Virus record (IMG/VR): IMGVR_UViG_3300033996_001294
Location: 1 to 30,968 of that record
Length of the DNA: 30,968 bases
From: a virus
Strand: one strand, 5' to 3'
Shown: piece after piece, positions 11,975-29,699 of the stretch
Layout: each line of letters starts with the position of its first letter
How positions within the stretch are numbered: the first letter of the stretch is position 1
The notes under the pieces: generated by a model
What the model saw: the letters and a program-made list of their open reading frames with translations, nothing else
Database searches by the model: none
Told to the model about the DNA's origin: nothing
Made by a program: the position numbers and the translations under genes

Positions 11975-12073
11975 TACGGCTCCTGTAAAAGATTGGAAAA
12001 ACTGGACTTAGTCTGTATGTTCGTACAAGACAGAGACCAAAACGTTCTATATTCCCACAAAAACGTCCCACGT
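11975..12073. promoter_or_regulatory. Divergent promoter region with motif copy B
   Basis: This stretch separates the minus-strand recombination operon from the plus-strand structural operon. It contains motif copy B (12042-12053, ACGTTCTATATT), 67 bases from the ERF start and 20 bases from the portal start, and an imperfect inverted repeat TGTA-TGTTCG-TACA at about 12014-12027. It probably drives ERF leftward; whether it also starts the late structural transcript is unknown. No consensus -35 box is evident. Confidence 0.5.
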
Positions 12074-14335
12074 ATGGCAAAAAAGAACACCGCCCAAGAC
12101 ACAGGCGACGACCTAGTAGCGTTACTTAATAGCCAGTTTAGGCTTATGGTAGCTCAGTCGTCAACAGCCCGCAAGATCATGAAAGAAGATCTTGAGATTT
12201 ATTACAGCGATGTTGAAGGGACACGAACACAATTTACTCAAAACCAATTAGAGTTTATTGCTGAACGTTATGATATTCCCATAAGCACAAAAATTTCGTG
12301 GGCTATAATTGAGCAGATGGTCAGTTTCCTTACAGGGGCTAAGCCATCGCCACGTTTGCTTGCGTCTGGTGATGTAGGCGCAGACTTTACAAATATGTAC
12401 GAGCAGGCAATGAAAGCTGCTTGGTACGAAGGCCACATGAACCGTGAGCTTGTCATGGTTATCCGTGATTGTCTTGCATGTGGTATCGGCTGGTTTATGG
12501 TTCGTCCTAATGATTTCTATTCAGAGACAACATTTGGCGTTGTCGGTGAGTACGTCCAATGGGAAAAGGTTTATGTAGACCCGCACACGCGCAAGCCAGA
12601 TTTTAGCGATGCAGAGTATTTGTGCGTTGTCGATGTTCTACCGCGCCATAAAGCAGAACGTCGTTATGATATAACGATTACAGAAGATGACATCACCAAC
12701 TTTGCTCCTGATATTATGTGGGGTATTGATACTACTCACATCCCACTTGTAGCAGGTTGGCCTTTTGAAGCAGGGCTTACAGGCAATACTCGTGATCGTT
12801 ATGTGTGGGTGCGCGAGTTTTTCTCAAAGCAAACGGTTAACGTATACATTAGTGATACAGGTCAGGTATCTGCTAAAAAGCCTAAGCCCATTAACATACC
12901 TAATCCTGAAAAAGAACAACTTGGTATGCAAATGATGCAGCTCCAGCAACAAATGGAGCAGGTTATGCCAGCAGCGCAACAAGCTAGCCAGCAAATGGAT
13001 ATTGCTGAAGGCGGACTAACTGACAGCGTGACTCCTATGCAACAGGTTGCTGAACAGGTGCAAGGCAGCCAACGGCAGTGGGATCAGGTTTCGGAACAGA
13101 TGAATGGTATGGCAGCACAAATGCAGCAACTGCAGATGCAATACGCACAAATGCCAGATTTGGTTATGGCATACGAGTTTACACTGCTGAGTGATGAGGT
13201 AGTTACAGCACGTAATTACTTCCGTAAAAATCAAAAGATGGTTAAGCGATATTTGCTAATCAACAATCGCATTATCGAGCAGTCGCTGATACCTTCTGAC
13301 GAATATCCGCTGATACCATTTACACTGTCAATGGCTAATAGACCTGACAGAATCTATGGTATTATGCACTACATCAAAGACATTGTTAAAGCTCTGAATA
13401 AATTTTGGAGCCTTCTTATCTACGATATGCAAACAAGTGCACATCGTAAAGTTATCTACCCCAAAGGAAGTATCGTTGACCCTAGCAAAGCTGAAAAGGA
13501 ATGGGCAAAGCCAAATGCTTTTATTGAATACAATCCAAATAGTGACCTGCCAAATGGAGGTATGCCTAACATTACTGATGCTGGTAATCTAAACCCTGCT
13601 ATTGAGCGTATTCTTGGATTGCTCCAAAACCTTTTAGAATATATTACAGGTATTAGCAGCCTTATGCAAGGACAGGCAACTAGTGCTACGCCTGATACCT
13701 TTGGCGGTATACAAACAATGCAGTCGTTTGGTACGCAACGTATCAAGCTATACAGTCGGTGGCTTGAAGATGCACTCGAAAGATTGTCATATGTTATGGT
13801 AAGCTATCTTCAGGTATACGCTCCTAAAGACAAAGTACTCGCTTACCTTGATGAAAACGGAGATCAGCAGGAACTTACTCTACTCGAAAGTCCTGAAGAT
13901 GTTCGTTTTAAGGTACGAATCAATATGACAAGCGCATTGCCTACGGCACGTGCAATGGCTGCTCAATTACTTGGCGTTCTCGGCGGGCAGACTAAAGACC
14001 CTCATGTGCAGCAGTTACTTACTCAGTATATGATTGAGTATTTGGATTTACCTGAATCGCAGAAAATACGTGAGGAAGTAGACGCTGTTAAAAACCTCAG
14101 CCAGCAAGTTGAGTCAATACAGCAGCAAGTACAGAAGCTCGATGCTGAAAACAAGCAACTCCAGCAACAGATCTTCCAGAAAAATCTTGAAGTCGAATAC
14201 GCTAAAGCAAAAGCACAGCTTCAGGCAGAGGTTAAAATTGCCTCAAGTGAGATTGACGCAGGCCGTACGCCACAGATCCCAGAATCACCTGAGCTTACAG
14301 CAGCAATACAAGACAATACACCACCACCATTTTGA
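12074..14335 (+). CDS. Portal protein
   Basis: A 753-residue protein with portal features: an N-terminal helical region (VALLNSQFRLMVAQSSTARK), a central wing/stem region, and YGIMHYIKDIVKALNKFWSL followed by GISSLMQGQATSATPDTFGG, typical of podovirus portals. It forms the dodecameric vertex through which TerL pumps DNA. Two features stand out: a Gln/Met-rich insertion at about 275-365 and a Gln-rich coiled coil near the C-terminus. The start MAKKNTAQDTGDD at 12074 is chosen by likeness; no clear ribosome site precedes it, and an ATG 19 codons upstream is possible. It begins the structural operon. Confidence 0.92.
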   Translation: MAKKNTAQDTGDDLVALLNSQFRLMVAQSSTARKIMKEDLEIYYSDVEGTRTQFTQNQLEFIAERYDIPISTKISWAIIEQMVSFLTGAKPSPRLLASGDVGADFTNMYEQAMKAAWYEGHMNRELVMVIRDCLACGIGWFMVRPNDFYSETTFGVVGEYVQWEKVYVDPHTRKPDFSDAEYLCVVDVLPRHKAERRYDITITEDDITNFAPDIMWGIDTTHIPLVAGWPFEAGLTGNTRDRYVWVREFFSKQTVNVYISDTGQVSAKKPKPINIPNPEKEQLGMQMMQLQQQMEQVMPAAQQASQQMDIAEGGLTDSVTPMQQVAEQVQGSQRQWDQVSEQMNGMAAQMQQLQMQYAQMPDLVMAYEFTLLSDEVVTARNYFRKNQKMVKRYLLINNRIIEQSLIPSDEYPLIPFTLSMANRPDRIYGIMHYIKDIVKALNKFWSLLIYDMQTSAHRKVIYPKGSIVDPSKAEKEWAKPNAFIEYNPNSDLPNGGMPNITDAGNLNPAIERILGLLQNLLEYITGISSLMQGQATSATPDTFGGIQTMQSFGTQRIKLYSRWLEDALERLSYVMVSYLQVYAPKDKVLAYLDENGDQQELTLLESPEDVRFKVRINMTSALPTARAMAAQLLGVLGGQTKDPHVQQLLTQYMIEYLDLPESQKIREEVDAVKNLSQQVESIQQQVQKLDAENKQLQQQIFQKNLEVEYAKAKAQLQAEVKIASSEIDAGRTPQIPESPELTAAIQDNTPPPF

Positions 14336-14342
14336 GTAAACC

Positions 14343-15323
14343 ATGAGCGCATTTTATCAGTTATTGCAAGACGTACCGTCCGTAGACGAGACAAATCAGT
14401 CCGACGAACCGACGCAGGAAAGTGGCGGGTATTCCGAGGAGATAGAAAGCCAGGGCCTAGACTACGATTTTATTCCAGAAGCATGGCGTCCGACAAATAA
14501 ATTTGCATCATCAGATGAAGAGTTAGATTTTTACCGTAGTAAATATCCTGCTCTTTGGCAACATGTGACAAGTGACGAATTTGCTAATGCTTTTGTAGAC
14601 CAATACAGCGGTCTAATAACCGAACACGATTCGGAATTAAAGGCAGCAAAAGCAATTATGCGAGGGTTAGATACTGACCCAATTAATTTTTTGATGACCT
14701 ATATCCCTGAATATGCAGGTGAGTTAGGTCTCGGCAATTACTATTCTGATGAAGCGATTGATCAGATAGTACAAGATGAAGTAACAAGAAAGTTTGGCGA
14801 AAACTGGCGTGAGGCATATGATCCAAGCGATCTTATTCGCCGTAACTCAGTAAGCAGTCAAATACTTAAATACACACAACAAGTTGAAAATCAGCTTGAA
14901 CAACAAAACCGACAATACGTACAAAACCGTAATCGGCGTGTTCAAGAGTTTTCACAAATGCAACAGCAACCACATGCACCGCAGACGCAGAATATTGAGA
15001 ACATTATGGATATGGCTATTGATTCTTATCTCAATGATCTTGCTCCCGAAGGTGTTACAGAAGATGAGTTTATTGAAACTTTCGTTAACGCAATGGCTTA
15101 CCAGCCTACTATGAAGGATATTCATAGGTTAATGAACTACAACAACGTTATTGAACAGGAGCGCAAGCGCGCGTATGAGCAAGGACGTAAAGCAATGCTC
15201 GATGAGTACCGCCGTGGCAGTAAGCAAGCTGCTAACGACTATGTACCGCGAACAGAAACATTTGAAGATAACAGACCAAAATCATTCATGGGACTTCGGT
15301 TGGGGAACATGAGTGGATATTAA
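14343..15323 (+). CDS. Probable scaffolding protein
   Basis: A 326-residue, acidic, helical protein directly between portal and capsid genes, the usual place of scaffold. Residues 1-45 are acidic and disordered; a long coiled coil follows at about 170-215 (QVENQLEQQNRQYVQNRNRR); the C-terminus is basic (EQERKRAYEQGRKA, then DNRPKSFMGLRLG), as expected for binding coat protein. It would guide prohead assembly and be absent from the mature virion. It starts seven bases after the portal stop with only a weak ribosome site. An internal-core or protease role is less likely; no protease motif is seen. Confidence 0.75.
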   Translation: MSAFYQLLQDVPSVDETNQSDEPTQESGGYSEEIESQGLDYDFIPEAWRPTNKFASSDEELDFYRSKYPALWQHVTSDEFANAFVDQYSGLITEHDSELKAAKAIMRGLDTDPINFLMTYIPEYAGELGLGNYYSDEAIDQIVQDEVTRKFGENWREAYDPSDLIRRNSVSSQILKYTQQVENQLEQQNRQYVQNRNRRVQEFSQMQQQPHAPQTQNIENIMDMAIDSYLNDLAPEGVTEDEFIETFVNAMAYQPTMKDIHRLMNYNNVIEQERKRAYEQGRKAMLDEYRRGSKQAANDYVPRTETFEDNRPKSFMGLRLGNMSGY

Positions 15324-15356: not shown

Positions 15357-16841
15357 ATGGCTACCGTACCACAAACACAGCAGGAAGGCTCGTTTTGGCA
15401 GAGTCTCTATACTAGCGGTGCGCTCCCTGAGCGTTTTCGCAAGTATGGTATGGATAACATGGGAGCGATGTCATATATCACTCGTGATTATACAAAGTTT
15501 GCTTCGATGCTATCCCAGCGTTTTCCAAAGACCAAAAATGTATCAGACCGTGAACATCGCGTACACGAGCTGACAGAACTCGATCGTACAATTACGGTCA
15601 CGACAGGAACAGCAGCAACAGATAACCACACAACATTTGGTGTAAGCAACGCTCAAGCAGCGATGTTCCAACCAAATGACATGTTTTTTGTACGTGGTCT
15701 CTACGCTTATGCTCTTGCTACTCCACTTGTAGCAGGTCAAGTAAACCCAGCTACAAACCAAGTACCTACACCAAACAACCCGCCAGCTCTCGGTTATACT
15801 GTGGGCGGTCAACCTACGGCAGTCGTATACGGTCGTACATGGGGTGAAGATCCTGCTAACACAGGTTTTTACTTTATTGACTACGATCAGTGCGTTGTGC
15901 GTAACGTAGGTGCGCCTAACTCAGCAGGTGCAGGCAACACACTTGTTACAGTAGAACGCTTCTATTGTGGCCCCGGCCCTCGTGACTTTGGTGGTGCTCG
16001 TGTGCCTATTGGCCTCGTCAACACAGGTGTCAACCTTAATAACGCTGGTGCTATTCTCCCTGGCGATGTACTGCTTCGTGCAACACCAACATGGCCTGAA
16101 GGTTCTGGTACAGCTCGTGGTTTCCACAAGAATCCAGTAATCGACAACAACTTTACTCAAGAGTTTAAGTATGCTGTTGAAATCGTTAAGGAATCCAAGA
16201 TCAACGCAACATATCTTGATAAGGATCCTCTCGAAATCAACCGTATGCTTCGCATGAAGCAAATGGCTCTTGACTGGGAGCGCACACTTCTGTTTGGTCG
16301 TAAGGGCAAGACAGTAGACAGCTTGGGTAATAGTGTTTACACAATGGGTGGTATTGCGGAATATATCCCACGCGATACAGACCACGTTCTACGCCACACA
16401 GCTCCAACAATCTCATACCCATCGCTTCAGCGTCTGCTGGATCAGGTTATGAAGAACGGTGGTTCAACAGAAAAGATTTGTCCTATTGGCACAACTCTTT
16501 ATACAGATTTCAAGATTGCTTTCTACGATTCAGGCTACATGCGCTATGATGAAGAAGCATCAAAGGAATTTGATATTCCAGTTGAATCAATCGTCCATGC
16601 AGGTTGCAAGCTGATCCTTGTTCCTTCACAAACGATGGAAGAAACAGGCTACGCTCGCAAGATGCTGTGCCTTGATCTTGGTGTACCATCCTTTACTGTT
16701 ACTACTCACAAGGAGTGGGACATGATTATCAATAAGGATATTGGTAATAAGGGTGAGCAGATCTACAAAGAAGAGTGGATCGGCATCAAGGGTCTTGAGC
16801 GTCGTTATGCTCAATATCAATCAATCATTTCTTTTGAATAA
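15357..16841 (+). CDS. Major capsid protein
   Basis: A 494-residue protein after the scaffold gene, the right size and place for an HK97-fold coat. It opens with MATVPQTQQEGSFWQSLYTS and contains FKYAVEIVKESKINATYLDKD-type and DWERTLLFGRKG segments expected of the spine helix and P-domain. An additional domain of about 130 residues (about 100-230), rich in Gly, Asn and Pro, may be surface exposed. AGGAACT precedes the ATG. Lysine codons in its second half are almost all AAG and Arg mostly CGT/CGC, in contrast to its neighbours, consistent with selection for high expression. Confidence 0.9.
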   Translation: MATVPQTQQEGSFWQSLYTSGALPERFRKYGMDNMGAMSYITRDYTKFASMLSQRFPKTKNVSDREHRVHELTELDRTITVTTGTAATDNHTTFGVSNAQAAMFQPNDMFFVRGLYAYALATPLVAGQVNPATNQVPTPNNPPALGYTVGGQPTAVVYGRTWGEDPANTGFYFIDYDQCVVRNVGAPNSAGAGNTLVTVERFYCGPGPRDFGGARVPIGLVNTGVNLNNAGAILPGDVLLRATPTWPEGSGTARGFHKNPVIDNNFTQEFKYAVEIVKESKINATYLDKDPLEINRMLRMKQMALDWERTLLFGRKGKTVDSLGNSVYTMGGIAEYIPRDTDHVLRHTAPTISYPSLQRLLDQVMKNGGSTEKICPIGTTLYTDFKIAFYDSGYMRYDEEASKEFDIPVESIVHAGCKLILVPSQTMEETGYARKMLCLDLGVPSFTVTTHKEWDMIINKDIGNKGEQIYKEEWIGIKGLERRYAQYQSIISFE

Positions 16842-16847
16842 GGAACC

Positions 16848-17333
16848 ATGAAGAACTTTATCATTGCTATCGTTCTCCTTGTTGCTGGTGTCGTTACGAC
16901 ATCAGCACAGGGAGTGGTGCAAACACGTGCACCGCAAACTCCAACAGTCCGCCCTGAACTTGTCTTTACATCAACAAAGACAGGTGGTGCAGCAACAGAC
17001 ACTGTATTTAGTGATATTGTCGCTCTTAAGGGTACGCTGTATTCAGCAACCATTGATACAATCCATCGTTTTGTAGGGTATCAAATTGTTACAGGTGATA
17101 CTTGTACATATACTATTGCATTCCAAGATTGCACACCAGAAGGTGCGCCATTTAATCCTGGAACATGGACAACAGTTGGAACAGCATTGCAATTTGTTCC
17201 GAATCGTGGTAACCAAATCTGGAACATTGTAGGTCTTTCTACCCACTTTGTTCGTTTTCGTTTGATCCGTGCACAAGGTGCTACGCAAAGTGTAAACGGA
17301 TCACGGTATTCTCTTTCACTATATCGTTACTAA
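16848..17333 (+). CDS. Exported protein with signal peptide, 161 aa
   Basis: The N-terminus MKNFIIAIVLLVAGVVTTSA followed by Gln-Gly is a textbook Sec signal peptide: a Lys, a 14-residue hydrophobic core, and a TSA cleavage site at residue 20. The rest looks like a beta-sandwich (GTWTTVGTALQFVP, then THFVRFRLIRAQG) ending YSLSLYRY. It lies six bases after the capsid stop with AAGGAA as ribosome site, so it should be made in large amount with the coat protein. Candidate roles are a periplasmic or surface factor such as superinfection exclusion, or a head decoration protein whose N-terminus only looks like a signal. I recognise no family. Confidence 0.75.
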   Translation: MKNFIIAIVLLVAGVVTTSAQGVVQTRAPQTPTVRPELVFTSTKTGGAATDTVFSDIVALKGTLYSATIDTIHRFVGYQIVTGDTCTYTIAFQDCTPEGAPFNPGTWTTVGTALQFVPNRGNQIWNIVGLSTHFVRFRLIRAQGATQSVNGSRYSLSLYRY

Positions 17334-17342
17334 GAGGTAATT

Positions 17343-17633
17343 ATGTTTTTCAATTGTGTTCGGCTCGAAGACATTAACGTCAAGTTCGGCCCTAACCCAG
17401 CCGACCGCATTGCTGTAATCACACAGTTTGCATCGCTTGCTGCTACTAACAACCAAGTATCTACACCATTCGCACCTGGAACAACAGTTCTCGTAGTGCC
17501 TTTGGCAACAGCTACCGTTGATGCTAACGGCGACGTATTGCTTACACCTAACCCTGAGCCAGGAACAGGCACAGCAGGTGGTTACATCGTACTCGGCCTC
17601 GGTCATCAGACACAAGGCGGTATTCGCGACTAA
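17343..17633 (+). CDS. Small structural-operon protein, 96 aa
   Basis: A Gly/Pro/Thr-rich, probably beta-structured protein (MFFNCVRLEDINVKFGPN). It has GAGGTAATT just before the ATG, one of the better plus-strand ribosome sites. Size and place, between capsid and neck genes, suit a head decoration or completion protein, but no family is recognised. Its TAA overlaps the next start as TAATG. Confidence 0.6.
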   Translation: MFFNCVRLEDINVKFGPNPADRIAVITQFASLAATNNQVSTPFAPGTTVLVVPLATATVDANGDVLLTPNPEPGTGTAGGYIVLGLGHQTQGGIRD

Positions 17634-18301
17634 TGCGTATTTGGCAAGCCCATATAGCTTTAGCACAGATGATGGGAGACCCGATCATAGTATCGGGTTC
17701 TCCCGTCACTGTTATTCCTGATGGCGTACGTTACAGTAGGCAGTTGCGTGATTTATATCTATATCGCGCAATGCTATCTATCATGGACAGTATTGTTCAG
17801 CCTGCGTTGCAGGTAGCAGACGTAGAAGCATCATCGCAGTTACAGCGATACATGCCTAATTACGTTGTCGAAGACATAATCCCATTTGCTTCATGGTCAC
17901 TTGACGATGAGCTGTTGTTGTCGCGTCGGCCTGTGACAGTTCATTCAGTATGGTTTGAACGTACGCAAATTGCCTTCGCACGACAGCCTGCTAACAGGTT
18001 TCATGCTATACAAAGCACAAACCCATATCATGACATTAGTCATGACGCTATGTATAGTATTCTGCCTGCACAGGTAGCAGGTGGAACAGAAGCATATGGT
18101 AAAGGGCGTCTTAAAATACGTGTGCCTGCGTTTGTAAATACAACTGACGACATACACGTGCTTTATGTGCCGACGCCATTAGATCCTTCAACACAGACAG
18201 CAAACAGCATATTAGACTTTGAACCGTTGATGTACGATAAGATTATCACAACGGCTAACACATTTGCTAAGGCAGATGCACAAGAGACACAGGCGCAATG
18301 A
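17633..18301 (+). CDS. Probable neck/connector protein, 222 aa
   Basis: Starts MRIWQAHIALAQMMGDPIIV, coupled to the previous gene by TAATG. Residues 30-70 form a helical RQLRDLYLYRAMLSIMDSIVQ segment; a long beta-rich part follows (PNYVVEDIIPFASWSLDDEL to RLKIRVPAFVN), then a C-terminal helix (YDKIITTANTFAKADAQETQ). The helix-beta-helix plan resembles head-tail adaptor proteins that bind under the portal. It ends as ATGA with the next gene. Exact role unproven. Confidence 0.55.
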   Translation: MRIWQAHIALAQMMGDPIIVSGSPVTVIPDGVRYSRQLRDLYLYRAMLSIMDSIVQPALQVADVEASSQLQRYMPNYVVEDIIPFASWSLDDELLLSRRPVTVHSVWFERTQIAFARQPANRFHAIQSTNPYHDISHDAMYSILPAQVAGGTEAYGKGRLKIRVPAFVNTTDDIHVLYVPTPLDPSTQTANSILDFEPLMYDKIITTANTFAKADAQETQAQ

Positions 18302-19188
18302 TAGTTAACATACCTAATATTGTTCCGTCTAATAGTTACTGGACTACTAAGATGCTTGTCACCAGTTTACGCAGTATGCTGCGTGATTATGGTGGGCAAG
18401 ACTTACAGACCTATGATCTACGACTATGGCTTAACATAGGTCTCACGCGAGCAGCTACGTTCATACGGCAGTTTGCTCCGCAGTTTTATACGTCACGATG
18501 GTCAGCAGTACTAAGCCCAGAAGTACTGGGGTCATTTGCCAATCTTCAATATGGTCTGACGCAGTTCCCATATTTGATTATTGATCTTAATACACCTGTT
18601 ACGGCAGGCATAGCAGACCCAGAGCGTGGTGAAAAGCAATGGCCTAACACTATTGGCTTTGCAACATTTAGCCCATATAAGTATGTAAGTTCTGTAAGCA
18701 GTTTGCAGATTATCCATAGGTATGCGAACACAACACAGAACTTTTGGATGGGCATACCTGAGCAAGTAGACATCAATAAGTTTGCTGCAATTAGCTCAGG
18801 ACTTAACGATCAATGGCGTCAGGATATTGTTTGGACGCAACAAGATTACAAAATATTGGTATGGGCTGGCAGCCAAGTGTTGCAAGACCCATCGTTAGGC
18901 AATCAAGCTATTACAAGCAATTGGTACAAAGATGCTGCTGTCGAGCTAACGATAGTACGTAAGCCAATTCTTGACGATCTATTGCCTCCTGACAGCAATC
19001 TTAGCAACTGGGAAGAGTTTGCTGATTGCCCTGATGAAGCTATTAACTTGGTATTACAATACGCGCGTGAGACAGCTATCGGTTATCTTGGTAAGCAAGA
19101 AGACCCTAATGCAAAACAAGTAACGTCGCTCATTGAACAATCACTATTGCTTTCATTGGGAAATGTCAACCAACAACCAACTCAGTAA
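18298..19188 (+). CDS. Probable neck/adaptor protein, 296 aa
   Basis: The ATG overlaps the previous stop (ATGA). It has an N-terminal helical pair (TTKMLVTSLRSMLRDYG and DLRLWLNIGLTRAATFIRQF), a beta-rich centre, and a C-terminal helical hairpin with CPDEAINLVLQYARETAIGY and QVTSLIEQSLLLSL. This pattern is shared with the 275-residue protein at 19692 and is typical of phage adaptor proteins under the portal. The two may be distant paralogues. The last 26 bases overlap the hydrolase start. Confidence 0.55.
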   Translation: MIVNIPNIVPSNSYWTTKMLVTSLRSMLRDYGGQDLQTYDLRLWLNIGLTRAATFIRQFAPQFYTSRWSAVLSPEVLGSFANLQYGLTQFPYLIIDLNTPVTAGIADPERGEKQWPNTIGFATFSPYKYVSSVSSLQIIHRYANTTQNFWMGIPEQVDINKFAAISSGLNDQWRQDIVWTQQDYKILVWAGSQVLQDPSLGNQAITSNWYKDAAVELTIVRKPILDDLLPPDSNLSNWEEFADCPDEAINLVLQYARETAIGYLGKQEDPNAKQVTSLIEQSLLLSLGNVNQQPTQ

Positions 19189-19723
19189 CATACAGCAAAA
19201 AATAGTAGACGAAGCACGTCGTTGGCTTCACGTACGGGAGATTGGGCGTAACGCATCGTTTAATGATCCTGAATTTGAAGCAGAGATGCGTAAAATTGGC
19301 TGGCGTCCAGGTCAAGCTTGGTGTGCCTACTTTGCCAAATTAGTATGGCTCAATGTCTACAAAGACACGCCTTTGCATGATATACTAGAGCGTACTCTCA
19401 GCGCAAGCGTACTTGTTACGTGGCGTAACGCCAAAGCATCCCCAGTAATTCATACAAGCGAAAAACCCATCGTGGGTGGCATAGTTTGTTGGGGTACAGG
19501 TAATGGCAAAGGTCATGAAGGAATACATGTTGAGATTAAAGACGAGTTTAACACTATAACTGTTGAAGGCAACACAAGCCGTGCTGGTGTCCGCGAGGGC
19601 GACAAAGTTATAGAAAAGCGTCGTAAGCTTCAACCCACAGCCAAGCACAATAAAGATTGGCGTTATTTAGGTACAATTATTCCTCCAAGCGATGGCAGCA
19701 ACAATACAGTCAGTTCTATCTAA
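19163..19723 (+). CDS. Peptidoglycan hydrolase, CHAP/NlpC-P60-like
   Basis: A 186-residue protein with a cysteine-hydrolase pattern: WRPGQAWCAYFAKLVW at 47-62 gives Cys54 as nucleophile; GHEGIHVEI at 117-125 gives a His (118 or 122); VEGNTS at 134-139 supplies a polar third residue. The WCAYF and GGIVCWG segments match the TIGR02594-like phage hydrolase group. It would cut peptide bridges of the cell wall. It could be the endolysin or a virion-carried enzyme for DNA entry; its place among connector genes favours the second or a dual role. No signal peptide. The ATG at 19163 has GGGAA upstream; a TTG start at 19133 is less likely. It overlaps both neighbours. Confidence 0.8.
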   Translation: MSTNNQLSNIQQKIVDEARRWLHVREIGRNASFNDPEFEAEMRKIGWRPGQAWCAYFAKLVWLNVYKDTPLHDILERTLSASVLVTWRNAKASPVIHTSEKPIVGGIVCWGTGNGKGHEGIHVEIKDEFNTITVEGNTSRAGVREGDKVIEKRRKLQPTAKHNKDWRYLGTIIPPSDGSNNTVSSI

Positions 19724-27573: not shown

Positions 27574-28767
27574 ATGTCAACTTCACAATTGCAAAGTGGT
27601 TACGCACCAGCAGGCGGTGGTGGTGCAGGTCTTACAGGCTTTACATCTGCTGCATACGATACTTCCCCTCATTTAAGTGTTAATACATCCGCAATTATTG
27701 CTACTGGAGCAACAGCTAATGTTGATGCCGTATTGCAACCTAAAGGGCAAGGAGCAATTGCAGCGCAAGTTGCTGACGGAACGGCAACTGGCGGTAACAA
27801 ACGAGGCACAGGAGCTGTTGATTTTCAAGTTGCGAGAACTGCAAATACCCAAATAGCTGCTGGAGCATTCGCAGTTTTGGTTGGAGGAAACCAAAATACA
27901 GTCACAGGGTCATACAATGCTATGCTTGGTGGACAAGTAAATTCAATTAGCACTGGCATGTTTAATGTAGTTGGTGGGGGATCGGCTAACAGTTTGACTG
28001 GCGCATCAGATTATAGTTTTTTAGGAGCAGGCCAATCAAATTCAATAAGCAACCAATTTGCATTTATAGGTGCTGGATCGTCAAACTCTGCTAGTGGTAG
28101 TAGAAGTGTTATTGGCGGGGGTATGTCAAATACTGCAACAGGATCTAGCGCAACGGTCAGCGGTGGTTCGCAAAATGGTAGCCGTAATTTTGTTGCTACT
28201 GTTGGTGGTGGGTCAAGTAATAATGTCTGGGCCCAGGCAGGTACTATTCCTGGCGGTGACGCTAATTATGTTGGCCCAGATGCTTACGGATCTACGGTAG
28301 TAGGCACAAATGGGCGTACAGATCTTAGAAACGCTTTTATCCACGGTGGTGGAGCACTTGGTCAGCAAGGTGATTGCCAGTTTGAAAGATTTATTTATGG
28401 TAGACGCACAACAGATGCTGTACAAACTGAAATTGCAAATAGTAATGCCACGGCAGATGATACAAACACTTACCGTATTACTAGTACTGGCTTGGCATAT
28501 TTCAAACTTGATTTAATAGCACGTCAAGAAGGTACACCAGGCCATATAGCAGTTTGGCAAATTTCTGGGGTTCTTAGGAATGAAGGTGGTACACATTTTT
28601 TTGTAGGGACACCAACAGTAACTTCAATAGCTACTCTAGGCAACGGCAGCACATGGAGTGTAGCAGTAGCGGTAGCAACTACAAGGTTGCGAATTTTAGC
28701 AACTGGCCAAGCTGCCACAAATATTAAATGGGCTGGATCTTTGGAAACGATTAGAGTATTAACCTAA
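27574..28767 (+). CDS. Adhesin-like tail fibre (beta-roll repeats)
   Basis: A 397-residue protein. After an anchor part with ANVDAVLQPKGQGAIAAQVA (about 48-67) and TGGNKRGTGAVDFQVART, there are about eight repeats of 15-17 residues (about 104-230) of the form GGxxNxxxGxxxxVI, as in trimeric autotransporter (YadA/Hep_Hag-type) head domains. The C-terminal 150 residues are a different, beta-rich domain that would bind the host surface. Such proteins form trimeric fibres that set host range. No chaperone or deacetylase motif is seen. The C-terminal domain is the likely receptor-binding part. Confidence 0.85.
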   Translation: MSTSQLQSGYAPAGGGGAGLTGFTSAAYDTSPHLSVNTSAIIATGATANVDAVLQPKGQGAIAAQVADGTATGGNKRGTGAVDFQVARTANTQIAAGAFAVLVGGNQNTVTGSYNAMLGGQVNSISTGMFNVVGGGSANSLTGASDYSFLGAGQSNSISNQFAFIGAGSSNSASGSRSVIGGGMSNTATGSSATVSGGSQNGSRNFVATVGGGSSNNVWAQAGTIPGGDANYVGPDAYGSTVVGTNGRTDLRNAFIHGGGALGQQGDCQFERFIYGRRTTDAVQTEIANSNATADDTNTYRITSTGLAYFKLDLIARQEGTPGHIAVWQISGVLRNEGGTHFFVGTPTVTSIATLGNGSTWSVAVAVATTRLRILATGQAATNIKWAGSLETIRVLT

Positions 28768-28778
28768 AGGAACTAATA

Positions 28779-29027
28779 ATGGCACTTGAACAACCAATCG
28801 AAGAAACAGTTATTGTAAAGCCAGCAGTATTGCTCAAAATTGAGCAAGTAATTGTACGGTTTATGGAACAGGATAGTTATGCAACAGCTATTTATTCATT
28901 GCTAAATGATGACAATGTTCCAGTAACAACGCAACCAATTGGTCTTACAGAAGCTGAATTAAGTGGATGGGAAGCAGATGATCAGTTTGTTGTTGATCTT
29001 ATCAAGACAAAGCTTAATCTATCATGA
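28779..29027 (+). CDS. Small protein after the fibre gene, 82 aa
   Basis: A soluble protein (MALEQPIEETVIVKPAVLLK) with an acidic C-terminus. AAAGGAACT gives it a good ribosome site. It starts a run of small genes after the fibre gene and ends as ATGA with the membrane protein that follows. It could be a fibre assembly chaperone, which often lies directly after the fibre gene, but no motif proves it. Confidence 0.5.
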   Translation: MALEQPIEETVIVKPAVLLKIEQVIVRFMEQDSYATAIYSLLNDDNVPVTTQPIGLTEAELSGWEADDQFVVDLIKTKLNLS

Positions 29028-29323
29028 CAATCAATACGTTGCTTGGGCTTATCATTACTACTATGATAGGCGTAATCGGCTATATGCTCAAAAGCCTTAT
29101 AGCCGAACATCACAAGACCCGTGATAGCTTTATAGCTATGCACGAGAATTTGAAGTTTACTACTGAAGAAATAGTCAACCTCAAAAAGTCTGATGAGTTA
29201 ATTACTCAACGTATTGTAGACATTATTGAACGTTTGGTCAGGCTGGAAGAACGAACAAACACAGAAAGACATGTGTATGGCAAACCTGCGCGACGAACCA
29301 CTCATTACAAGAGTTCCTCCTAG
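29024..29323 (+). CDS. Membrane protein with coiled coil, possible lysis or spanin-like factor
   Basis: A 99-residue protein with one N-terminal membrane span (about 4-25, TLLGLIITTMIGVIGYML) and a long charged coiled coil (about 26-80, with EEIVNLKKSDELITQRIVDI). One span plus a coiled coil is the shape of i-spanins and of some holin-associated proteins (XhlA-like). It overlaps the 82-residue gene by ATGA and the holin-like gene by 53 bases. No outer-membrane partner (o-spanin lipobox) is seen nearby, so its role is open. Confidence 0.6.
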   Translation: MTINTLLGLIITTMIGVIGYMLKSLIAEHHKTRDSFIAMHENLKFTTEEIVNLKKSDELITQRIVDIIERLVRLEERTNTERHVYGKPARRTTHYKSSS

Positions 29324-29699
29324 AAAGATAGAACGACCAGGTTTTACGCCATTTAACCTACCTGACCGTTACAAACCAAAGCAAATTGACCTCGAACCAA
29401 AGAACATCCCAATAGCAGAAACTGCTATGACTCTTTGGGAACGGACTAAATTCTACGCGAACCTTACAGTATTGGCAATAAGGCTGATACCAATTTTAAT
29501 AACTCTCAAGATGAGTACCATGAAAAAAGATTGGAAAACAACAGTAACAGGCATCGTCAAAGCAGTATTTCTAGCTTTGAGTATCTTTGGCGTAAGCACA
29601 GGCAACGTAACTGAAAGCCTTGTACTTGGCGTAGGTTATGCCATTGTCGATCTAGTTCAATCGTTCTTTACTGCCGACTCAGTTAAAAATGAACAATAA
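29271..29699 (+). CDS. Multi-span membrane protein, possible holin
   Basis: The frame from ATG 29271 (ATG 29277 is equally possible) gives about 142 residues: a Pro-rich soluble N-terminus, then hydrophobic spans at FYANLTVLAIRLIPILITL, VTGIVKAVFLALSIFGVS and ESLVLGVGYAIVDLVQSFF. The last 63 residues (from 29511, MSTMKKDWKTTVTGI) resemble small phage holins that begin with a short Lys/Trp/Thr segment, so an internal start may make a second, shorter product. It would form pores that release the lysin. It overlaps the membrane/coiled-coil gene before it and the phosphatase start by 11 bases. Confidence 0.55.
   Translation: MCMANLRDEPLITRVPPRKIERPGFTPFNLPDRYKPKQIDLEPKNIPIAETAMTLWERTKFYANLTVLAIRLIPILITLKMSTMKKDWKTTVTGIVKAVFLALSIFGVSTGNVTESLVLGVGYAIVDLVQSFFTADSVKNEQ

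What the first reader, a model, noticed from the sequence alone, without database searches (positions are those of the whole stretch)
16848..17333. Signal-peptide protein encoded directly after the capsid gene
A clear Sec signal (Lys, 14-residue hydrophobic core, TSA cleavage, then Gln) starts a 161-residue beta-rich protein with a good ribosome site in the most highly expressed part of the structural operon. Exported proteins are rare in the head module. It may coat the cell surface, block superinfection, or be a structural protein made through the envelope.
Basis: partly seen in the sequence, partly recalled or inferred. Interest (0 to 1): 0.55.

Follow-up and report, generated by a model that had tools for sequence, protein, structure and literature searches.

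The report
Exported protein encoded beside phage capsid
This phage, like nearly all of its relatives that could be read, carries right behind its capsid gene a gene for a protein that looks built to be exported out of the cytoplasm; what that protein does outside is not known.

Summary
ORF 16848-17333 (161 aa) starts with a textbook Sec signal peptide (MKN, hydrophobic core, TTSA|Q). Relatives (99, 98, 62 and 51-56% identical) rewrite the leader, some with 7 extra residues, yet keep its hydrophobic character and the A|Q junction, while the mature part is under purifying selection.

The feature goes beyond this gene. In 18 of 19 related contigs whose gene after the capsid gene could be read, with capsid identity down to about 35%, that gene starts with a Sec-type signal; six contigs have two in tandem. 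One (L028) lacks it. A rule-based scan of 280 genes in 17 loci gave 19 hits, 18 at this spot. Six stretches of five other phages gave 1 in 187, not in the head module.

Export by Sec and signal peptidase I is therefore very likely. A +1 glutamine fits the Bacteroidetes Q-rule. Function is open: a low-confidence model is a jelly-roll-like beta sandwich resembling glycan-binding modules and a capsid cement protein. I favour a surface or periplasmic protein made with the capsid that limits re-adsorption; an exported capsid coat is the bold alternative. Nine paper searches showed no description of such a gene.

The parts
16840..16844 (+). AAGGA, ribosome-binding-site-like, 3 bases before the ATG
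   Evidence: read; same in L002, L003, L004
16848..16907 (+). signal peptide, residues 1-20 (MKNFIIAIVLLVAGVVTTSA); cut expected after Ala20
   Evidence: kept in kind in relatives
16908..17333 (+). mature part, residues 21-161, with Gln at +1; segment PQ.PTVRPE.VF near its start is nearly unchanged in all seven homologues; predicted beta sandwich; stop included
15357..16841 (+). major capsid protein, SU10 type, directly upstream
   Evidence: Pfam SU10_MCP E 2.6e-18; PHROG major head protein E 7.5e-6
17343..17633 (+). 96-aa protein next downstream; a protein of about 92-126 aa follows the exported gene(s) in the relatives too
17633..18301 (+). 222-aa protein, conserved next gene (start R.WEAH-like), probably a neck protein (inference)
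   Evidence: tblastn to distant relatives
14343..15323 (+). 326-aa protein in the usual place of a scaffold (inference)
   Evidence: position; relatives
11993..14335 (+). portal protein, P22 type; used to find distant relatives
   Evidence: Pfam P22_portal E 4.9e-49

Best explanation
A phage protein made from the same operon as the capsid protein, sent through the host Sec translocon, cut by signal peptidase I after Ala20 and probably capped by cyclisation of Gln21. It then sits in the periplasm or on the surface of the infected cell as a compact beta-sandwich binding protein. Steps: a coding gene with a conserved signal peptide is shown by sequence; export and cutting are inferred (about 0.9); the cap is inferred from the Q-rule and needs a host with a glutaminyl cyclase; the role is inferred with low confidence. 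The role I commit to (about 0.35) is that abundant late export masks or jams a surface receptor or glycan, so that new virions are not lost on the infected cell, its debris or already infected neighbours.
For: Signal peptide of standard anatomy. Leader drifts in sequence (dN 0.65 and 0.80 against 0.23 and 0.36 for the mature part) but keeps core and A|Q in all seven homologues. Sec-type leader in the gene after the capsid gene in 18 of 19 readable contigs. Nearly confined to this spot: 18 of 19 rule hits in 280 genes. +1 Gln in the window group, L029, L030, L031, L033 fits the Q-rule (PMC5837995, passages), and exported Q-rule proteins are reported in Porphyromonas phages (PMC10367356, passages). 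For the role: a small exported phage protein that shuts a receptor is known in T5 Llp (PMC9586334, passages); fold neighbours include glycan-binding modules (weak).
Against: No localisation data. The window protein has no lipobox, unlike Llp. It lies behind the capsid gene, not behind a receptor-binding gene. Its constant place and a divergence between that of the capsid and that of the neck proteins fit a head-linked role as well or better. L028 lacks the gene. Host unknown. Model confidence low. The window group is not linked by sequence to the exported proteins of the distant relatives.
Confidence: 0.42

Rival explanations
1. An exported capsid coat: the protein is a cement or decoration protein in its usual place behind the capsid gene, but is stored outside the cytoplasm and binds finished heads when the cell bursts.
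For: Place behind the capsid gene in 18 of 19 contigs; beta-sandwich proteins occupy this place in BPP-1 (jelly-roll cement protein Bbp16, needed for infectious particles; PMC3863775, passages) and phiEco32 (Ig-domain protein); model resembles BPP-1 cement protein with Z 8.2, rmsd 3.6, 114 residues, 14% identity; divergence follows the head genes more than the neck and tail genes.
Against: Tailed-phage heads are built in the cytoplasm (established knowledge), so export removes the protein from them; Bbp16 is not cleaved and has no leader; no sequence similarity to Bbp16 or phiEco32 gp12; the cement match is tied with many unrelated folds.
Confidence: 0.2
2. A periplasmic or outer-membrane protein of lysis or envelope remodelling, acting late with the endolysin.
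For: Late operon, exported; other lysis-type genes lie downstream (CHAP-like 19133-19723).
Against: Not next to the lysis-type genes; beta sandwich without an enzyme match in Pfam or PHROGs; its constant place is with the capsid gene.
Confidence: 0.15
3. Not export: the hydrophobic N-terminus is a membrane anchor or a head-protein propeptide cut by a phage protease.
For: PMC10367356 explains signal-peptide calls on capsid proteins of Porphyromonas phages by prohead protease cutting (passages).
Against: Leader has all three Sec regions and a small-residue site in every group; A|Q is invariant in seven homologues while the leader around it drifts; the protein is not the capsid protein; no prohead protease was recognised in the window (searched only for the 20 proteins).
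Confidence: 0.08

Closest known systems
Q-rule signal-peptide proteins of Porphyromonas gingivalis phages, proposed family Nixviridae (PMC10367356, passages)
   Same: Phage genes of unknown function with a Sec leader that exposes Gln after cutting
   Different: That paper's passages describe five such genes in temperate siphovirus-like phages and tie none to the place behind the capsid gene; here the gene is held there across a lineage. No sequence comparison was made
T5 Llp and Cor superinfection-exclusion lipoproteins (PMC9586334, passages)
   Same: Small exported phage protein encoded next to a structural gene
   Different: Llp is a lipoprotein behind the receptor-binding gene pb5; here signal peptidase I type, no Cys at +1, behind the capsid gene
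BPP-1 cement protein Bbp16 (PMC3863775, passages; locus L042)
   Same: Gene directly after the capsid gene, 140 aa, jelly roll; weak model match
   Different: No signal peptide, not cleaved, no sequence similarity
phiEco32 gp12, Ig-domain protein (locus L041)
   Same: Gene directly after the capsid gene, 170 aa
   Different: No signal peptide, no sequence similarity
T4 Spackle, periplasmic superinfection-exclusion protein (PMC7677548, abstract start in listing)
   Same: Phage protein that acts in the periplasm
   Different: Early gene product that inhibits the lysozyme of the tail spike; no comparison made here

Membership tests
Sec / signal peptidase I substrate | Positive n-region, hydrophobic h-region, small residues at -3 and -1 | tested here: met
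   kept in seven homologues. No SignalP was available
Sec / signal peptidase I substrate | Exported and cut in the cell | not testable with these tools
   needs localisation and N-terminal sequencing
Bacteroidetes Q-rule substrate | Gln at +1 of the cut | tested here: met
   7 of 7 in the window group; also L029, L030, L031, L033; not in L016, L020, L022
Bacteroidetes Q-rule substrate | Host of that phylum with a glutaminyl cyclase | not testable with these tools
   host not found
Llp/Cor superinfection-exclusion lipoprotein | Lipobox Cys at +1 | tested here: not met
   Gln at +1 in all seven
Llp/Cor superinfection-exclusion lipoprotein | Blocks the phage receptor | not testable with these tools
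   needs adsorption tests
Jelly-roll capsid cement protein (BPP-1 Bbp16 type) | Gene next to the capsid gene | tested here: met
Jelly-roll capsid cement protein (BPP-1 Bbp16 type) | Jelly-roll fold | tested here: inconclusive
   model pLDDT 59.8; Z 8.2 to 3j4u_H, tied with unrelated folds
Jelly-roll capsid cement protein (BPP-1 Bbp16 type) | Made and kept in the cytoplasm, no leader | tested here: not met
   signal peptide present; Bbp16 has none
Jelly-roll capsid cement protein (BPP-1 Bbp16 type) | Present on the virion | not testable with these tools
   needs virion proteomics
Exported family of the distant relatives (first and second proteins of L016, L020, L030, L031, L033) | Sequence homology of the mature part | tested here: inconclusive
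   E 0.15 against the first proteins, 0.016 and 0.066 against the pooled profile, controls 0.27 or more

The most novel reading that the evidence does not exclude
A tailed-phage capsid coat made through the envelope: a cement-type jelly-roll protein, encoded with the capsid protein, is exported by Sec, matured and stored outside the cytoplasm, and put on the heads only when the cell bursts. A whole lineage of uncultured phages would then finish its particles outside the cytoplasm.
Probability: 0.2. Interest if true: 0.85.

Novelty: new variant of a known kind. Interest (0 to 1): 0.57.

Why it matters
Tailed phages build their heads in the cytoplasm, so an export signal held behind the capsid gene across a deep lineage is unexpected. 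Either the capsid operon also carries a surface-acting protein, which would mean that most members of this lineage invest in masking or reworking the infected cell's surface, or a virion component is routed through the envelope, which to my knowledge would be new for tailed phages. One localisation test and one virion proteomics test would settle which.

Tried and rejected
Homologues in named phages: tblastn of the target, its L030 counterpart, the capsid proteins of the window and L016, and the 1157-aa protein found nothing usable; the 11 mycobacteriophage hits are at E 0.6 and were taken as chance. The portal and terminase gave only distant hits. The L030 capsid protein hit one Vibrio phage at 24% identity; the gene after its capsid gene has no signal peptide.

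A profile scan with the three-row target alignment confirmed no locus, not even the known ones, because its two patterns were poor; not read as absence. Integrated copies: two scans of genome contigs, with the capsid protein and with the portal profile, found no relative, so no host was found.

One mature family for all groups: profile comparison links the first proteins of L016/L020, L030/L031 and L033 with each other and with the second proteins (pooled profiles E 1.6e-9 and 6.7e-10; L033 to G008 E 2e-4), L029 weakly (E 8e-5, probability 61), but not the window group. A shared motif seen by eye (D-S/T..F..E, later SP.G) is a lead only. In one search many rows came out as end-to-end alignments of a few columns; local mode was set.

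The second (59.8) used 13 rows, ten of them not shown to be homologous to the window protein. Its top hits (birnavirus VP2 domain, Eph ligand-binding domains, CBM22) were not taken as function. Foldseek's lists gave no match above TM-score 0.57 by query length. Sequence search of the Protein Data Bank gave only hits at E 0.72 and above.

Disulfides as a reason for export: cysteine positions are not conserved between groups; rejected as a general reason. Type IX secretion: considered, not tested.

Literature: nine searches over open PubMed Central papers showed no description of a conserved signal-peptide gene behind the capsid gene; most listings were judged by title and abstract start only, and subscription journals and preprints are largely missing. 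PMC7677548 and PMC10653852 were seen only as abstract starts in listings; PMC6199706 and PMC8143477 as passages, with nothing that bears on the gene.

Full report
The window is a 30,968-base virus record of IMG/VR from a tailed phage with a P22-type portal (11993-14335), a 326-aa gene in the usual place of a scaffold, and an SU10-type capsid protein (15357-16841). The finding concerns the next gene, 16848-17333.

The 161-aa protein starts MKNFIIAIVLLVAGVVTTSA|QGVVQ. Its N-terminus is the most hydrophobic of 38 hand-picked window ORFs and the only one to pass a simple signal-peptide rule (Lys/Arg near the start, no acid in the first 12 residues, a nine-residue core, small residues at -3 and -1): 1 of 33 genes of at least 100 aa, 1 of 42 of at least 60 aa. 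The rule finds candidates; it does not place the cut, which I put after Ala20 by eye. No SignalP was available.

Close relatives show that the leader is a kept function, not a chance run. L002 and L003 are 99 and 98% identical, L004 62-64%, L013, L014 and L015 51-56% depending on the alignment. L004 has a rewritten leader (MKNIIFIVAFVLSTAASVLA|Q) and L013-L015 one 7 residues longer (MKTIITFLSAVILAVTLFTVNSVEGVA|Q). All seven keep the core and A|Q. Against L004 and L013 the first 20 codons show about two to three times the amino-acid-changing divergence of the mature part (dN 0.65 and 0.80 against 0.23 and 0.36), and close pairs give dN/dS of 0.03-0.08 over the mature part (synonymous sites are saturated for the L004 pair). 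A leader that drifts while its kind is kept is what a signal peptide does.

The portal brought in distant relatives. Counting contigs whose gene after the capsid gene can be read from its start, the window included, 18 of 19 have a Sec-type leader there: the window, L002, L003, L004, L013, L014, L015, L016, L017, L020, L021, L022, L023, leader only, L029, L030, L031, L033, and the L034 record, where the capsid gene runs across the record's ends and the gene lies at its start. The exception is L028, where the 100-aa protein follows the capsid gene directly. Three contigs were left out because they end before or inside the capsid gene: L008, L010, L027. Several of the 19 are near-identical pairs, so the number of well-separated lineages is smaller, by my reading seven to nine. 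By tblastn, capsid identity to the window falls to 34-47% for the distant ones. L016, L017, L020, L021, L030 and L031 have two such genes in tandem, L021's second being cut by the contig end.

The place is special within these genomes. In 17 loci the rule hit 19 of 280 genes; 18 are genes after the capsid gene, one is a doubtful reading frame in L028. In seven records, six of them 51-57 kb, it hit 14 of 427 genes: 9 at this place, 3 small and membrane-like, 1 lipoprotein-like, 1 doubtful (there the rule also allowed Cys at -1, and it missed the second gene of G007). As controls, six stretches of five other phages (MW202512, phi38:1 twice, phiEco32, BPP-1, crAss001) gave 1 hit in 187 genes, in phi38:1 away from its structural genes; the genes after the capsid gene in MW202512, phiEco32 and BPP-1 have no leader, nor has that of the Vibrio phage MF497422. 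The crAss001 stretch did not include a capsid gene. These are few controls.

What the proteins share beyond the leader is only partly shown. The first proteins of L016/L020, L030/L031 and L033 are one family, and the second proteins belong to it (pooled profiles E 1.6e-9). L029 is probable. The window group is not linked, save weakly to the pooled profile of both (E 0.016 and 0.066 in the two directions; controls for the window group 0.27 or more). So for the window group the claim across the lineage is one of place and leader, not of proven descent.

Residues at the cut follow two patterns: Gln at +1 in the window group, L029, L030, L031 and L033, but Lys or Met in L016, L020 and L022. The Q-rule (most signal peptidase I substrates of Bacteroidetes expose Gln, later cyclised) is described in PMC5837995 (passages), where a few Chlorobi and Ignavibacterium album also score high. 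The host here is unknown. Shine-Dalgarno-like sites are common in relatives (46 of 69 genes against 18 after one shuffle in G004) and weaker in the window (11 of 42 against 6); from memory, classical Bacteroidota use such sites little, so a Q-rule lineage outside them is possible. Porphyromonas phages are reported to carry five Q-rule genes of unknown function (PMC10367356, passages); the same passage explains signal-peptide calls on capsid proteins by prohead protease cutting, which I weighed as a rival.

Structure prediction for the mature part gives a beta sandwich of low confidence (mean pLDDT 59.8). Its neighbours are jelly-roll-like sandwiches: birnavirus VP2 domain (Z 10.3, rmsd 5.9, 133 aligned), Eph receptor ligand-binding domains (8.1-9.2), CBM22 (8.6), Bacteroides SGBP-B (8.2) and the BPP-1 cement protein (8.2, rmsd 3.6, 114 aligned, 14% identity). 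This says only that the fold may be a binding-type sandwich.

How it works, most likely: export by Sec is inferred at about 0.9. For the role, two readings compete. As a surface or periplasmic protein made with the capsid late in infection it could mask receptors, as T5 Llp does by another route (PMC9586334, passages). As a cement-type protein in the cement gene's place it could coat heads after lysis. The constant place and the pattern of divergence (target 62 and 52%, 96-aa protein 72 and 60%, capsid 89 and 77%, 222-aa protein 51 and 43% in L024 and L026) speak for a core role tied to the head; the export signal speaks for a role outside the cytoplasm. I put 0.35 on masking, about 0.2 on the coat, and leave the rest to lysis, envelope and unknown roles.

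Novelty: exported phage proteins are known, and so are beta-sandwich proteins encoded behind capsid genes. A signal peptide held in that place across a deep lineage was not found in nine searches of open papers, and none of the 13 mature proteins tested matches a Pfam or PHROGs family better than E 0.016.

Noticed in passing
16848-17333 against L002/L025 (contig 3300044695_004231): The target is 99% identical while its neighbours are less so (326-aa gene 44%, capsid 91%, 96-aa gene 94%, 222-aa gene 75%), which suggests local exchange between phages.
   Followed up: partly
L030:14849-15795, L031:14920-15872, L016:13274-14283, L020:9590-10599: Two exported-type genes in tandem after the capsid gene; the first and second proteins are homologous by pooled profiles (E 1.6e-9), so probably an old duplication.
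   Followed up: partly
L060:18602-18940 (record G007): A 112-aa lipoprotein-like gene on the minus strand, the only other exported-type candidate of that record in the scan.
   Followed up: no
19133-19723: CHAP-like protein (E 0.00032, below Pfam's cut-off) inside the structural operon, with relatives at the same place; a candidate endolysin.
   Followed up: no
29024-29323 and 29226-29699: Two overlapping genes with hydrophobic segments and no convincing Pfam match; candidates for holin or spanin functions.
   Followed up: no
27574-28767: 397-aa protein with a weak match to the grass antifreeze beta-roll (E 0.0016, below the cut-off), with repeated G.SN-type motifs; perhaps a fibre.
   Followed up: no
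L028:13263-13582: The one relative without the exported gene; the 100-aa protein follows the capsid gene directly. Its G+C is 0.52, against 0.32-0.46 in the other loci.
   Followed up: partly
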